Source: Marine Group I thaumarchaeote (lineage in GTDB: Archaea > Thermoproteota > Nitrososphaeria > Nitrososphaerales > Nitrosopumilaceae). From it: a DNA stretch of 32,788 bases. Position numbers and translations under genes: made by a program. The notes beneath the pieces were generated by a model. That model saw nothing but the letters and a program-made list of their open reading frames with translations. It was not told the origin of the DNA and searched no databases. The stretch's first letter is position 1, and each line of letters begins with the position of its first letter. The stretch spans positions 1-32,788 of the forward strand of contig JACATG010000011.1 in assembly GCA_013390905.1 (NCBI GenBank), in the 5' to 3' direction. Positions 1 through 6,256 of the stretch are shown in pieces.

Positions 1-379
1 TAGCTATAATATTTGTAATATCATTGGAATTAATAATAATTGGATCACTAGATGATACAGAAACTAAAATATCACCATCAAGATATGGTTGGGAGCAATT
101 TATACAACCACCTCCACCACCGGAAGTTTTACCACCAACCGCGAATGGAGATAATGATGTAACAATGCAAGTAATTTCATTTGCAGCCTCATCTATAGTA
201 CAATCATCTTCAGTAATCCATGCTCCATTCTCATAGTGCAACATAGTTAATTGAGATTCATTAGTTCCTTCTTGGATATTTGCTTCTTTGTATGGAAGAG
301 TAATAGTCATAAGACCACTATTTGCAGTACTTCCAGTTAAATCAAAGTCGATAATACTAGATATAGCAGTAATAACGTT
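1..379 (-). CDS. C-terminal continuation of the surface repeat protein, in a shifted frame; partial at window edge
   Basis: This minus-strand frame has no stop from about 382 to base 1 and is offset by one base from the frame of the large gene upstream. Its translation begins DNVITAISSIIDFDLTG, then shows a beta-rich segment, the stretch LHYENGAWITEDDC, the phrase TSLSPFAVGG and a glycine run ending in Cys (GGGGGC). This kind of C-terminal part, with a domain ending in SPFAVGG followed by a Gly linker, is one I recall from archaeal surface proteins. Deleting one base from the two Gs at 382-383 would join both frames without a gap. The only early ATG in the frame (codon 310-308) falls inside the domain, so an independent gene is less likely than a frameshifted tail. 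The end lies outside the window. Confidence 0.7.
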
Positions 380-3300
380 ATCCAAGTTTCATCTCTAATG
401 CTCCATCAATATCAAATGTAGCACCAGTATCTGTGACAATATCGTTAGGATCTTTTACAGTAACATCCATGTTACCATCAGTTGTAATACTTGAAAAAGT
501 CATAGAAATACCTAATCCATCAATAGATAATGTTGGGTTGTCTTTAGTTACGGTATTTTTAATTGCAGGAATAGTTGTTCCAGCAGCAATTACTTCACCT
601 TTAGATAAAATGTCAGCAGCATCAGCAGGAATACAGTCAGTTCCAGCACTACTACAAGTAGCAGTACTAAGGAGCAATCCAGCAGATAATACAGTACCTT
701 TAGGTAATGTTTGACCATCTGCAAACGTTGAACCTAACTCAAATTGTGAACCGCTTTGAATAGTTTGTGTGGCAAGAGTAAGATTACCTACTCCAAAATC
801 AACAGCACCACTAAAGGTTTGTGCTTGAGTAAATGTAACTCCTGTTTCAAATTCTGTACCTGCACCAAATGTGTTGGCACCAACAAATGTGGTAGTTCCC
901 TCAAAGTTTGGTGCATCTTTGAAATTTAATGCCTCAGCAAAGGATACAGCATTACCAAATGTGGTAAAGTTAGCAAAGACAGGGTCTTTATCTGCATCCC
1001 ATGATTGATTATCTGCAAATTCAGCACCGTTTGGGTAAGCTTGATCATCTGGGAAATCAATTACACCATCAAAATTAACATGTTCACCAAACACTTCTGT
1101 AGCATTAGCAAGGAACAAAGTACCTATTTTAAATGTCAAATCACTAGCTGACAAATCATGGTTTACATTACTTGTAAAGTTTTGATTTTCAGCAAATGTA
1201 GCTGAAGCACCAAATGTTTTAGCATTAGTACCAAAGTCTATAGATTCAACAGAACCAAAAGTTATACCAGTGGCACCAAGAGCAGTACTGTTAGTAAGTC
1301 CAGACAAGTTTTGTCCATCATCAAATGTTATACTTGAAGGAAATGTTTGAGCAGCAGTAAAGTTAGCATTGCCACTAAATTCAATTCCAGAACCAAAGGT
1401 TTGAACATGCTCTGAGAATTTTTGATTTTCAGCAAACTTCATGTTAGAACCAAATGTTTGAGCACCTGCATCAAAGTCTTGGGTTTTTGCTTGAGTGATA
1501 ATCATGGTATCACTAGAAGAAGTAGTGACATCAGTAATTCTGCCCAATTCACCATCATCAATTATTCCATTATCATTGGCATCATTGAAAAGTACTTCTT
1601 GAATTTTATCTTGTTTAGCAATATCAACATCAGAGAAAGTTATTGTTACAAGACCAGTTTCAAAACTTCCTGATGATGCAGAAATACTAGGAAATGCTGC
1701 GTCTTGTTTTACCTGAGTATTAATTAAAACATTAGTATCTATATCAGTAGGAGCACTAGTTACAATACCCATTGTAGAGAAATCTTGAGATGCTGCAAAG
1801 TTTGTACCTGCTCCAAATGTGTTGGCACCTGCAAAGGTTTGAGGTACAGCAAAGGTTTGAGAGGTTGCAAATGTAGAGTCTATACCAAATGTGTTGGCAC
1901 CATGGAAAAGTTGTACACCTGAAGTAAAGTTACCTGCTTCACCAAATGTTTCAGCTGTGGCAAAGTCACTACCAGTTCCATATTGTATTGCCTTGAAGTT
2001 GAAGTTATTGGCTGCACTTGTAAAGTCTTGATATGCAACGAAGCCCATATTAGGTGCAAAGGTCATTCCGCCAGCTGAAAAGTCCATAGTAGAAGTGAAT
2101 GGTTGACCTGGTGCAAAGGTTGTACCTGGACCAAAGACGGTATTACTACCAAAGTCTTGAACTGGGTCTTGTACAAAGGAGATGGTTGTACCTGCTGCAA
2201 ATCTGACTGAAGATGGTAAATCAGCGAGTTCACAAGCATCATCTGCAGTACCAGTACAATCAATGACACCATTGTTGTTACTGTCTGTAAAAGTTACATC
2301 GTTAATTTGAGAACCAAAAGTTACTGCACTAAAGTCAGCATAAATTATACCTGTATCATAAATACCACTGTTAGTTGCATTAATTGAAGTATGACCATCC
2401 ACACCATCATCATCTTCATCAATGAGTGCAATGATAGTATACCAATCAGTTGTACCAGTAGTTAATCCATTTAATCGTAAATTACCTGAGGTTTCAAACA
2501 TGCTACCAAAGTCTTGATTTACAAAGAACGTCATGGCATCACCAAATGTGTTGCTACCGGTAAAGTTTTGAGTGGCTGCAAAGGTTTGAGATGCTGCAAA
2601 TATAGAGTCTTTACCAAATGTGTTGGAACCTAAAAAGGTCATTATACCAGATGTAAAGTTTGCATCCATACCAAAGGTTTGGGCTGTTTTAAAGGTTGAA
2701 CCTAAACCATAGGTCATATCATCAAAGGCAAAGTTATGGTCAAATTTTGTAAAGTCTTGACCTGCAGAGAAGCCCATACCAGGTGCAAAGATCATTGCAC
2801 CATTTGTAAAGTCCATAGTAGAAGTGAATACTTGTTCATTTGCAAATGATGTTCCAACAGTAAATGCTGTGTTAGATCCAAAGGTTTGGGTGGAAGATTG
2901 ATCAAATAGTACAGTTGCAGTATTGGCAAATGCGACAGGTTTAGAAAGATCAGCTAGCTCACAAGCTCCATCACTGATACAGTCAATGATACCATTACTG
3001 TTAGCATCAGTGAATTGTACATCATTAATTGAGTTACCAGAAGTTACAGCACTAAAGTCCACATAAACTATTCCAGTAGAGTAACTATTACCAAAACCTA
3101 ATGCAGAAACAGTTGTTGCAGCAGAATCAAGGGACCGCAATATATCAAAAATGTTGGCAGTACCAGTACCATTTCCAGCAAGAGGTAGATCACCTGAACC
3201 CACTTTGATATCAGCAAAGTTTTGGACTGCGCCAAAGGATGTACCTGCACCAAATGTGTTGGAACCATTAAAGGTTTGAATGGCTGCAAATGATTGAGAT

Positions 3301-4667
3301 GCTGCAAATTTAGAGTCTTTACCAAATGCGTTGGCACCATGGAAAAGTTGTACACCTGAAGCAAAGTTACCTGCTTCACCAAATGTTTCAGCTGTGGCAA
3401 AGTCACTACCAGTTCCATATTTCATTCCCTTTCCTGAGAAATCATGGTCTACATTTAGTTGGTTAAAGTCTTGACCTGCAAAGAATTGCATTCCATCTTT
3501 AAAGTTCATTGCGCCATCTGCAAAGTTTTGAGTTGAACTAAATGTTTGACCTGGTACAAAGGTTGTACCTGCAGCAAAGACGGTATTACTACCAAATGTG
3601 TGAAATGGGTCTTGTTCAAAGGAGATGGTTGTACCTGCTGCAAAGGTTACTGGAGATGATAAATCAGCGAGTTCACAAGTATTATTTGCAGTACAATCAA
3701 TGACACCATTGTTGTTACTGTCTGTAAAAGTTACATCGTTACGTTGAGAACCAAAAGTTACAGCACTAAAGTCAGCATAAATTATACCTGCATTATAAGC
3801 ACCACCAATGTTAGTTGCATTAATTGAAGTATGACCATCTACACCATCATTACCTTCATCAATTAGTGCAATGATAGTATACCAATAAGTTGTACCAGTA
3901 GTTAATCCATTTAATCGTAAATTACCTGAGGTGTTAGTATTGCCACCAAAGTTTTGATTGTCTCCAAAGTGCATGGCATCACCAAATGTGTTGGTGCCAT
4001 TAAAGGTTTGAGCTACTGCAAAGGTTTGACCATTTGCAAATATTGTATTTGCACCAAAATTGTTGGCACCAGAAAAGTTCTGAATGCCAGAATTAAAATT
4101 GGCATCGTTACCAAATGATATGTTTTCATTAAAGGAACTATCAGCACCAAACTCCATATTATTGCTGACAAAGTTATGATTGCCAGAACCTTTGAAATTT
4201 TGACTGGATGCAAATTTTGAATTTGCACCGAAATTCTGTTCACCTGAAAATTCTTGTATATCACCTGAATGGTCTTCGGCACCATGTGCAGTACCAGTCA
4301 TAAATTGATTTGAGGCAATGGCAGTACCATGGCTATTAATTGCAGATACTCTAAATTTCAAGAAATCACCTTCTGATAGACCAGTTACAGTGTAAGTTAC
4401 AGCAGTACTGCCAGTGGTAGCTGTAACATTAGTATAAGCATTAAAATTAGTAAAACTAGTTTCAACAGCAGACTCTATCCAATATCCAGTAATAGTTTGA
4501 CCGTTATTTGCAGGTGCAGTCCATTTTAGGTAAATTTCAGTATCAGATGATAACTTAGATTTATCCAAATCAGTAATAGCATCAGGTGCTCCAGCAAATA
4601 CGGGAGAAATACCAAATATACAAGAAATAATAGCTAAAAGTAAGAACAACGAAAAGAGTTTATGCAT
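378..4667 (-). CDS. Giant secreted Phe-hexapeptide repeat protein, candidate S-layer/cell-surface protein (frame ends early at an apparent frameshift)
   Basis: The 1429-residue product opens with a signal peptide (Lys3, hydrophobic core to about 22, likely cut after VFA at 25) and a fibronectin-III-like domain (about 27-128). From about 140 on, Phe recurs every sixth residue: 146, 152, 158, 166, 173, 179, 185, 191, 198, 204, 210 and so on to 240, with motifs such as NTFGAGT and FAASQTF. Four insert modules spaced about 230-243 residues apart (centred near 318, 558, 800 and 1030) carry a DxNxNGxID loop of calcium-binding type. Three of them also have a Cys pair (C325/C331 in the first). The product should be exported, repeat-rich and possibly solenoid-shaped. 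The gene starts at ATG 4667 with a TATA-like box near 4695. It stops at 378-380, although homologous-looking sequence continues in another frame. An S-layer role is inferred from size, export and repeats. Confidence 0.85.
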   Translation of the reverse strand: MHKLFSLFLLLAIISCIFGISPVFAGAPDAITDLDKSKLSSDTEIYLKWTAPANNGQTITGYWIESAVETSFTNFNAYTNVTATTGSTAVTYTVTGLSEGDFLKFRVSAINSHGTAIASNQFMTGTAHGAEDHSGDIQEFSGEQNFGANSKFASSQNFKGSGNHNFVSNNMEFGADSSFNENISFGNDANFNSGIQNFSGANNFGANTIFANGQTFAVAQTFNGTNTFGDAMHFGDNQNFGGNTNTSGNLRLNGLTTGTTYWYTIIALIDEGNDGVDGHTSINATNIGGAYNAGIIYADFSAVTFGSQRNDVTFTDSNNNGVIDCTANNTCELADLSSPVTFAAGTTISFEQDPFHTFGSNTVFAAGTTFVPGQTFSSTQNFADGAMNFKDGMQFFAGQDFNQLNVDHDFSGKGMKYGTGSDFATAETFGEAGNFASGVQLFHGANAFGKDSKFAASQSFAAIQTFNGSNTFGAGTSFGAVQNFADIKVGSGDLPLAGNGTGTANIFDILRSLDSAATTVSALGFGNSYSTGIVYVDFSAVTSGNSINDVQFTDANSNGIIDCISDGACELADLSKPVAFANTATVLFDQSSTQTFGSNTAFTVGTSFANEQVFTSTMDFTNGAMIFAPGMGFSAGQDFTKFDHNFAFDDMTYGLGSTFKTAQTFGMDANFTSGIMTFLGSNTFGKDSIFAASQTFAATQNFTGSNTFGDAMTFFVNQDFGSMFETSGNLRLNGLTTGTTDWYTIIALIDEDDDGVDGHTSINATNSGIYDTGIIYADFSAVTFGSQINDVTFTDSNNNGVIDCTGTADDACELADLPSSVRFAAGTTISFVQDPVQDFGSNTVFGPGTTFAPGQPFTSTMDFSAGGMTFAPNMGFVAYQDFTSAANNFNFKAIQYGTGSDFATAETFGEAGNFTSGVQLFHGANTFGIDSTFATSQTFAVPQTFAGANTFGAGTNFAASQDFSTMGIVTSAPTDIDTNVLINTQVKQDAAFPSISASSGSFETGLVTITFSDVDIAKQDKIQEVLFNDANDNGIIDDGELGRITDVTTSSSDTMIITQAKTQDFDAGAQTFGSNMKFAENQKFSEHVQTFGSGIEFSGNANFTAAQTFPSSITFDDGQNLSGLTNSTALGATGITFGSVESIDFGTNAKTFGASATFAENQNFTSNVNHDLSASDLTFKIGTLFLANATEVFGEHVNFDGVIDFPDDQAYPNGAEFADNQSWDADKDPVFANFTTFGNAVSFAEALNFKDAPNFEGTTTFVGANTFGAGTEFETGVTFTQAQTFSGAVDFGVGNLTLATQTIQSGSQFELGSTFADGQTLPKGTVLSAGLLLSTATCSSAGTDCIPADAADILSKGEVIAAGTTIPAIKNTVTKDNPTLSIDGLGISMTFSSITTDGNMDVTVKDPNDIVTDTGATFDIDGALEMKLG
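1804..2600. repeat. Downstream copy of a ~0.8 kb internal repeat of the surface-protein gene
   Basis: This block is closely similar in DNA to 3241-4040, at an offset of 1437-1443 bases. Anchor words include catggaaaag at 1901 against 3338, gggtcttg at 2164 against 3607 and caatgacacc at 2261 against 3698. The offset changes by six-base steps, which keeps the reading frame. A middle part (about 1985-2100) is more diverged. It encodes Phe-hexapeptide repeats and the third DxNxNG module. Confidence 0.8.
3241..4040. repeat. Upstream copy of the ~0.8 kb internal repeat of the surface-protein gene
   Basis: Partner of 1804-2600. The two copies are separated by an intermediate block (about 2600-3240) that is itself more distantly related at about half the offset (for example aagcccat near 2041 and 2771). 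This indicates an A-B-A-like expansion of a two-module unit of roughly 480 codons. Confidence 0.8.
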
Positions 4668-4757: not shown

Positions 4758-4877
4758 TTAAAAAATTACTAATTCTTCAAGGGTCATTGTTTTACCATCT
4801 TGAGAATTATTTCGAAACTCTTGGATATCATTAATTTCTTCAGGAGTTAAATCATCAATCTGTTTTGCTTTTGACAT
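4758..4877 (-). CDS. Small acidic 39-residue protein, unknown
   Basis: ATG 4877 opens a 39-residue frame rich in Asp, Glu and Gln (MSKAKQIDDLTPEEINDIQE at the start, QDGKTMTLEELVIF at the end). It sits 62 bases after the moeB-like gene and about 90 before the surface-protein gene, all on the same strand. The composition is protein-like: a TPEE helix cap followed by a helix, then a G-K-T-hydrophobic-EEL tail. It resembles the short acidic segments of antitoxins or small helical peptides, but I do not recognise a family. No toxin partner is visible and no Shine-Dalgarno sequence is seen. It could also be a chance frame in AT-rich DNA, though the codon use looks like that of neighbouring genes. 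Confidence 0.45.
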   Translation of the reverse strand: MSKAKQIDDLTPEEINDIQEFRNNSQDGKTMTLEELVIF

Positions 4878-4939: not shown

Positions 4940-6256
4940 CTATGCAAGTAATTCCTTGTATAGAGAAATGGCTGATTCCTCGTCTTTACTTCCAACAATA
5001 ACTGCAGAACCTTTTTTCATAAAACTAACTGAATAGTCATTATTCCTCAATAATAGTCCTAGCTCACCTTGATTATCAACTAGTAGCCCTTTGGATTTAG
5101 CTATTACAGTTACTGATGGAATATCTAAATCAAATGTACTAGTTGGAGTAATTGAGAAGGTTCTTTTCCCCTGATTTCTACCACACAACTCTTCAGTGAT
5201 TAATTCCTCTTTGACTGATTCTTCTAGTTTACCAGTACCACAAATTGGGCACTCTTCTGCTCTAAATGTTCTAGTGCTAGTGAAATCCATTGTTTCAATG
5301 TCTACATGTAGTATTTTATCAGACAAACTAGGTTTCTTGCCCATGATTACCTTAATGGCTTCAGCTACCTCAATGCCACCAATAATAGATAGAATTGATG
5401 GGTGTACTCCCTCCAAACTACAAGTGGGCATTGAATCCTCATCTAGATCAGGAAACATACAGTAGTAGCATGCAGACTCTTTTGGGAGAATAGTGAATGC
5501 TTGTCCTGTAACTCCAACTGCAGCACCTGTTACAAATGGAATGTTTAGTTTAACACATGCTTTGTTTAATGCATATCTTGCATCAACTGAATCCAATGCA
5601 TCAATTACTACATCACAGTCTTGAATCACTTCAAGTGCAGTATACTCGTTAACTGATATAGCTAATGCCTCAATAGTGCAATCAGGATTTTTTTCTGACA
5701 ACTTTTTTGCTGCCACCTCTACTTTGACTTTACCAACATCTGCTTCTGAAAACATTGTCTGTCTATGCAGATTGGATAATTCAATTACATCTCTATCAAC
5801 AATTCGTAGAGTGCCTACACCCATTGCAGCTAGTCCACTAGTAATTGGATTTCCCAGTCCTCCAACTCCAATTACACAGATACGAGAATTTTTTAATTTC
5901 AATTGTCCATTATATCCAATTTCCTCAAGCATTACTTGTCGAGAGAATTTATCTAGTTCTTTTTTGGATAGTTCCTCTGATCCACCAGCAACAGCTGGTA
6001 AAATGTATACATCATCGCCATCATGAAGTTCAGTCTCCATGCCATCTAAGAATTTTGCATTTTTACCATTAATGTAAATATTAATCAAAGAACGTGGTTT
6101 ACCATCAGATTCTAGTACTCTTCGCTTAAAGTCATCACCCATAATATTAGAAATGGCTGCAAATGCTTCTTGTAGGAAGTTTGCCTCAATGTCTGTTTTT
6201 TTCTCGCCACCGCCGGCATTTAATACAGAAGGAATTGTAAATGTGAGTTTTGCCAT
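4940..6256 (-). CDS. moeB: MoaD/ThiS-like domain fused to MoeB/ThiF-type E1 adenylyltransferase
   Basis: Residues 1-92 form a ubiquitin-like sulfur-carrier domain ending in the di-glycine AVAGG (91-92). Residues about 98-350 are a MoeB/ThiF/HesA adenylating enzyme: ATP loop GVGGLGNP (130-137), the ELSNLHRQ motif (159-166), GKVK (176-179), paired zinc cysteines C263/C266 and C336/C339, and TCSLEGV with the probable catalytic Cys279. About 80 residues at the C-terminus form an extra domain I do not recognise. The E1 part would adenylate the carrier glycine for sulfur transfer to molybdopterin, thiamine, tRNA or an amino-acid pathway. The fusion places the di-glycine internally, which is odd because the chemistry needs a free carboxyl end. 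ATG 6256 follows the threonine synthase stop by two bases, so the two are surely cotranscribed. Confidence 0.9.
   Translation of the reverse strand: MAKLTFTIPSVLNAGGGEKKTDIEANFLQEAFAAISNIMGDDFKRRVLESDGKPRSLINIYINGKNAKFLDGMETELHDGDDVYILPAVAGGSEELSKKELDKFSRQVMLEEIGYNGQLKLKNSRICVIGVGGLGNPITSGLAAMGVGTLRIVDRDVIELSNLHRQTMFSEADVGKVKVEVAAKKLSEKNPDCTIEALAISVNEYTALEVIQDCDVVIDALDSVDARYALNKACVKLNIPFVTGAAVGVTGQAFTILPKESACYYCMFPDLDEDSMPTCSLEGVHPSILSIIGGIEVAEAIKVIMGKKPSLSDKILHVDIETMDFTSTRTFRAEECPICGTGKLEESVKEELITEELCGRNQGKRTFSITPTSTFDLDIPSVTVIAKSKGLLVDNQGELGLLLRNNDYSVSFMKKGSAVIVGSKDEESAISLYKELLA

What the first reader, a model, noticed from the sequence alone, without database searches (positions are those of the whole stretch)
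360..400. Frameshift splits a giant surface-protein gene: error, pseudogene or recoding
The minus-strand frame stops at 378-380 after AAA CTT GGA TAA C, yet one base out of register an open frame runs to the window edge and encodes a typical surface-protein C-terminus (SPFAVGG, Gly run, Cys). Removing one G at 382-383 restores a continuous product (KLDNVITAI). Alternatively a +1 slip of the tRNA on GGA, with the TAA waiting in the A site followed by C, would fuse both parts, much as in bacterial prfB. If this is an abundant surface protein, true loss would be costly, so either a sequence error or real recoding is worth settling.
Basis: partly seen in the sequence, partly recalled or inferred. 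Interest (0 to 1): 0.7.

Follow-up and report, generated by a model that had tools for sequence, protein, structure and literature searches.

The report
Broken surface-protein gene near contig end
A large cell-surface protein gene of a Nitrosopumilus-type archaeon is knocked out of reading frame 378 bases from the end of its assembled contig; relatives carry the same region unbroken and nothing about the site looks like programmed frameshifting, so it is most likely an assembly or consensus error, or failing that an ordinary recent mutation.

Summary
The minus-strand frame 378-4667 (1429 aa, signal-like N-terminus, FN3 domain, then AQTFG-type repeats) ends at TAA 378-380. A second frame, 2-385, continues to the edge and encodes the rest of the same domain. 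Three homologues in the same genus read through this point in one frame (about 43% identity, no stop), so the halves belong to one gene. The change of frame must lie in 8 bases, 381-388.

Recoding is not supported. No homologue shares the site, it is not prfB-like (CUU is not next to the stop, GGA to GAU is a poor re-pairing), and RNA structure is unremarkable. A gene boundary is excluded.

The window is a whole contig and the break lies 378 bases from its end. Synteny suggests the next gene across the gap is the main S-layer gene, which starts contig C14; in this assembly it has an in-frame TAA, although relatives are intact. A third surface gene, 0.9 kb from the end of C7, has a TGA where nearly all relatives have Trp. 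In 250 kb sampled I saw only these three breaks, all in surface genes near contig ends. Local assembly or consensus error is most likely; a real recent null allele is second. Reads would settle it.

The parts
378..4667 (-). 5' part of the surface-protein gene, 1429 aa: signal-like N-terminus, FN3 domain, AQTFG/FGxxTxF-type repeats, first half of a C-terminal-region domain
   Evidence: ORF list and translation; Pfam fn3 E 1.1e-9 at residues 31-120; homologues G017/G071/G069
4308..4577 (-). FN3 domain
   Evidence: Pfam PF00041, residues 31-120
378..380 (-). TAA that ends the upstream frame
381..388 (-). 8-base bracket (AACTTGGA) in which the frame must change
   Evidence: last stop of the downstream frame is TGA 391-389, first stop of the upstream frame is TAA 380-378
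2..385 (-). 3' part of the same gene in the other frame, cut by the contig end
   Evidence: 128 aa open frame; E 4e-26, 53% to an uninterrupted G017 protein; junction alignment A1
4940..6256 (-). Upstream neighbour, ThiF/MoeB-like protein with a MoaD-like N-terminus, named from its sequence; in relatives the main S-layer gene follows it directly
   Evidence: translation; synteny

Best explanation
The frame break is most likely a local assembly or consensus error, probably from low coverage or mixed strains in a hypervariable surface-gene region at a contig end. The gene in the living organism would then be a single uninterrupted frame encoding a large secreted or anchored surface protein. Shown: the break exists in this sequence, relatives are uninterrupted, the break is 378 bases from a contig end, and two other surface genes near contig ends of the same assembly are also broken. 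Inferred: that reads would not support the break.
For: Three congeneric homologues read straight through the junction. The window is the whole contig C6 and the break is 378 bases from its end. G000 contig C14 starts at residue 28 of the S-layer protein, and in nine relatives with the junction readable the S-layer gene directly follows the ThiF gene that flanks this gene, so C6-left and C14-left probably face one gap. The only S-layer copy found in G000 has an in-frame TAA at C14:1902-1904, while full-length relatives run about 1,525-1,565 aa without a stop. A third surface gene has a TGA at C7:98899-98901, 0.9 kb from the end of C7, where nine of ten aligned relatives have Trp. An ab initio scan of 250.6 kb of G000 gave only these three breaks that I could not explain as ordinary gene boundaries, antisense or random frames. 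Antonov et al. 2013 (PMC3711429) expect unclustered frameshifts validated by BLASTp to be sequencing errors rather than genuine indels.
Against: No reads or second assembly of this species could be examined. Most sampled bases were contig ends, so enrichment at ends is suggestive only; internal sampling was the rest of the window and one 19 kb stretch. The two other breaks are in-frame stops, not indels. The sampled assembly has no general indel problem, and the site has no long homopolymer.
Confidence: 0.64

Rival explanations
1. The break is real: a recent frameshift mutation (null allele or early pseudogene) in a dispensable, patchily distributed surface-protein gene. The product would be a truncated, probably unanchored protein.
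For: The gene is rare in the genus (3 of 94 other held genomes) and absent from this slot in nine relatives, so it is plausibly dispensable. There is no general indel problem in the sampled assembly.
Against: No other stop or frame break in 1429 + 128 codons; coding periodicity is intact on both sides (GC3 0.20 and 0.16). The same assembly also breaks the S-layer gene, which is unlikely to be lost.
Confidence: 0.29
2. Programmed +1 ribosomal frameshifting fuses the two frames.
For: Both frames are coding. The stop lies immediately after the possible slip site: only 3.2% of simulated single-base insertions in this ORF give a bracket of 8 bases or less.
Against: No homologue has the break or a two-frame arrangement. 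CUU is separated from the stop by GGA, and re-pairing of a GGA-reading tRNA on GAU leaves one Watson-Crick pair. Flanking RNA folds are unremarkable (z -1.6 to -1.9). The only confirmed archaeal cellular case is a -1 shift in fucA1 (PMC8211752).
Confidence: 0.05
3. Phase variation by slipped-strand mispairing switches the surface protein on and off.
For: Surface proteins are common targets of phase variation (general knowledge).
Against: No repeat tract at 381-388; the longest runs at the site are AAA and GG.
Confidence: 0.01
4. Two separate genes that overlap by a few bases.
For: A TTG codon lies at 385-383.
Against: The split falls inside one conserved domain, uninterrupted in all three homologues; the 3' frame has no signal sequence.
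Confidence: 0.01

Closest known systems
Singleton frameshifted genes explained by sequencing or assembly error (GeneTack singletons, Antonov et al. 2013, PMC3711429)
   Same: One genome only, homologues intact, both halves match one protein
   Different: Close to a contig end and accompanied by other broken surface genes in the same assembly
prfB (release factor 2) +1 programmed frameshift
   Same: A stop codon closely follows a codon CUU, and a +1 frame carries on
   Different: CUU is not adjacent to the stop, no Shine-Dalgarno-like stimulator seen, site not conserved, archaeal surface gene
fucA1 of Saccharolobus solfataricus (-1 programmed frameshift; PMC8211752)
   Same: Archaeal gene split in two frames
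   Different: -1 direction with a slippery heptamer A-AAA-AAT, stem-loop and rare codons; none of these here
   Same: Same C-terminal-region domain and repeat type; FN3 domain shown in G017
   Different: Uninterrupted there; 837 to about 1,020 aa against at least 1,557 codons here

Membership tests
Programmed +1 frameshifting (prfB-like) | Frameshift site conserved among homologues | tested here: not met
   Three homologues uninterrupted at this point
Programmed +1 frameshifting (prfB-like) | P-site codon that re-pairs well one base on, with the stop in the A site | tested here: not met
   Sequence is CUU GGA UAA; GGA to GAU leaves one Watson-Crick pair (sequence)
Programmed +1 frameshifting (prfB-like) | Stimulatory signal: SD-like element or strong RNA structure | tested here: inconclusive
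   No prfB-like SD element seen by eye; folds z -1.6 to -1.9, 7-12 of 200 shuffles as good
Programmed +1 frameshifting (prfB-like) | Fused product observed | not testable with these tools
   No proteome or ribosome profiling data
Phase-variable gene | Tandem repeat or homopolymer tract at the switch point | tested here: not met
   AACTTGGA bracket, no tract
Sequencing or assembly error | Break limited to one genome with intact homologues | tested here: met
Sequencing or assembly error | Break absent from raw reads or an independent assembly | not testable with these tools
   No reads; the genome collections hold one genome per species and the scans found no near-identical record
Pseudogene | Further disabling changes or loss of coding signature | tested here: not met
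   No other stop in 1429 + 128 codons; GC by codon position 0.46/0.46/0.20 and 0.41/0.44/0.16

The most novel reading that the evidence does not exclude
A lineage-specific +1 recoding site that controls how much of a giant archaeal surface protein is anchored to the cell; it would be the first confirmed +1 programmed frameshift in an archaeal cellular gene.
Probability: 0.04. Interest if true: 0.75.

Novelty: not a real feature. Interest (0 to 1): 0.12.

Why it matters
It matters mainly as a caution. In this assembly three surface genes next to contig ends are broken, among them the only S-layer gene found, so gene calls and inferences of 'loss' or recoding from such ends should be checked against reads. 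If the break were real and recoded, it would be a rare archaeal case.

Tried and rejected
A scan of genome contigs with the segment just upstream of the break found no relative. A scan with the four-sequence alignment found only the same three homologues plus a short match in an Actinomycetota MAG. No other G000 contig overlaps the first 120 bases of the window, so the contig could not be extended. AlphaFold2 on the intact homologous domain gave pLDDT 47 and was not used. No PDB match for the domain profile. A possible second frame break in a small ORF upstream of the gene (4758-4877) could not be judged: only weak partial matches. Paper search for contig-end error rates gave nothing directly usable. 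prfB-like recoding, phase variation and separate genes were considered and rejected as described.

Full report
Observation. The minus-strand ORF 378-4667 ends in ATG AAA CTT GGA TAA, and a second frame is open from 388 to the edge of the window. The last stop of the second frame is TGA 391-389 and the first stop of the first frame is TAA 380-378, so the frame must change in the eight bases 381-388.

The two frames are one gene. The 2-385 frame matches an uninterrupted 837-aa protein in a congener (G017) at E 4e-26 and 53% identity. A query across the junction, with X at the junction, matches G017, G071 and G069 in one frame without stops, at E 1e-31 to 5e-27 and 42-43% identity over the domain. 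The break falls inside a conserved domain whose other end is the TSLSPF(G/A)VG motif. Nine matches to the end of the G017 protein exist in G000, all on other contigs; I did not find one placed as the continuation of this gene.

Position in the assembly. The window is the complete contig C6 of a 1.23 Mb, 20-contig, 98.5% complete genome, so the break is 378 bases from a contig end. No other contig overlaps the first 120 bases.

What lies across the gap. The gene's upstream neighbour is a ThiF/MoeB-like protein with a MoaD-like start (named from sequence). In nine relatives in which the junction can be read (G006, G097, G029, G023, G100, G115, G017, G113, G111) the main S-layer gene follows this neighbour directly. 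In G000 the S-layer gene is on contig C14, whose first bases encode residue 28 of that protein. C6-left and C14-left therefore probably face the same gap, with the giant gene lying between ThiF and the S-layer gene; this adjacency is inferred.

Other broken surface genes. The S-layer gene on C14, the only copy found, has an in-frame TAA at C14:1902-1904, inside one continuous tblastn alignment to the 1525-aa G006 protein. The relatives aligned across this column have other residues there, and the full-length ones are frames of about 1,525-1,565 aa. At C7:98899-98901 a TGA interrupts another surface gene 0.9 kb from the end of C7; nine of ten relatives aligned there have Trp in GGPLWK-type sequence. 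An ab initio scan of 250.6 kb of G000 listed about 40 candidate pairs; the others read as ordinary gene boundaries, antisense frames or random frames, judged by eye. All three breaks are in surface genes within 2 kb of contig ends. Most sampled bases were contig ends, so the association with ends is suggestive, not measured.

Recoding. In favour: both frames are coding and the bracket is tight; 3.2% of simulated single-base insertions in the same ORF give one as tight or tighter. Against: no homologue shares the site; CUU is separated from the stop by GGA; re-pairing from GGA to GAU leaves one Watson-Crick pair; flanking RNA folds are unremarkable (z -1.6 to -1.9). In archaea the only confirmed cellular case is the -1 shift of fucA1, with a slippery heptamer, stem-loop and rare codons; a +1 event has been reported in a haloarchaeal virus (PMC8211752). 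Antonov et al. (PMC3711429) require at least five genes and a conserved site to call a programmed frameshift and expect singletons validated by BLASTp to be sequencing errors.

Error or real null allele. Both halves retain coding periodicity and no other stop, so a real break would have to be recent. The gene is rare in the genus (3 of 94 other held genomes) and might be dispensable; the S-layer gene is much less likely to be. Because both are broken on the two sides of one presumed gap, a shared local cause, such as low coverage or mixed strains in a hypervariable region, is more economical than two independent losses. The weak point is that the other two breaks are in-frame stops rather than indels, and no reads were available. 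I put error at 0.64, a real null allele at 0.29 and recoding at 0.05.

Conclusion. A correct observation, most likely with an ordinary cause. The site should be checked in reads before any biological meaning is given to it. 'Not a real feature' is chosen as the novelty class because error is the leading explanation; it is not proven.

Noticed in passing
L050 (G000:C14) 1902-1904: The only S-layer gene copy found in this assembly has an in-frame TAA; relatives aligned there are uninterrupted. Contig C14 begins at residue 28 of this protein.
   Followed up: yes
L086 5112-5114 (G000:C7:98899-98901): In-frame TGA in a surface gene 0.9 kb from the contig end, where nine of ten aligned relatives have Trp.
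   Followed up: yes
window 378-4667: Large FN3 plus AQTFG/FGxxTxF-repeat surface protein, found in only three other congeners held and absent from the ThiF to S-layer slot in nine relatives; internal repeat units up to 88% identical over 199 bases. No Pfam family covers the repeats.
   Followed up: partly
window 4758-4877, minus strand: Small ORF (MSKAKQIDDLTPEEINDIQEF...) just upstream of the giant gene, ending after a run of six T; only weak partial matches elsewhere, so it may be a degraded or frame-broken small gene.
   Followed up: partly
L034, L036, L037, L070-L078: The slot between the ThiF gene and the S-layer gene is variable in the genus: direct adjacency in some genomes, several kb of envelope or glycosyltransferase-like genes in others (G080, G107).
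   Followed up: no
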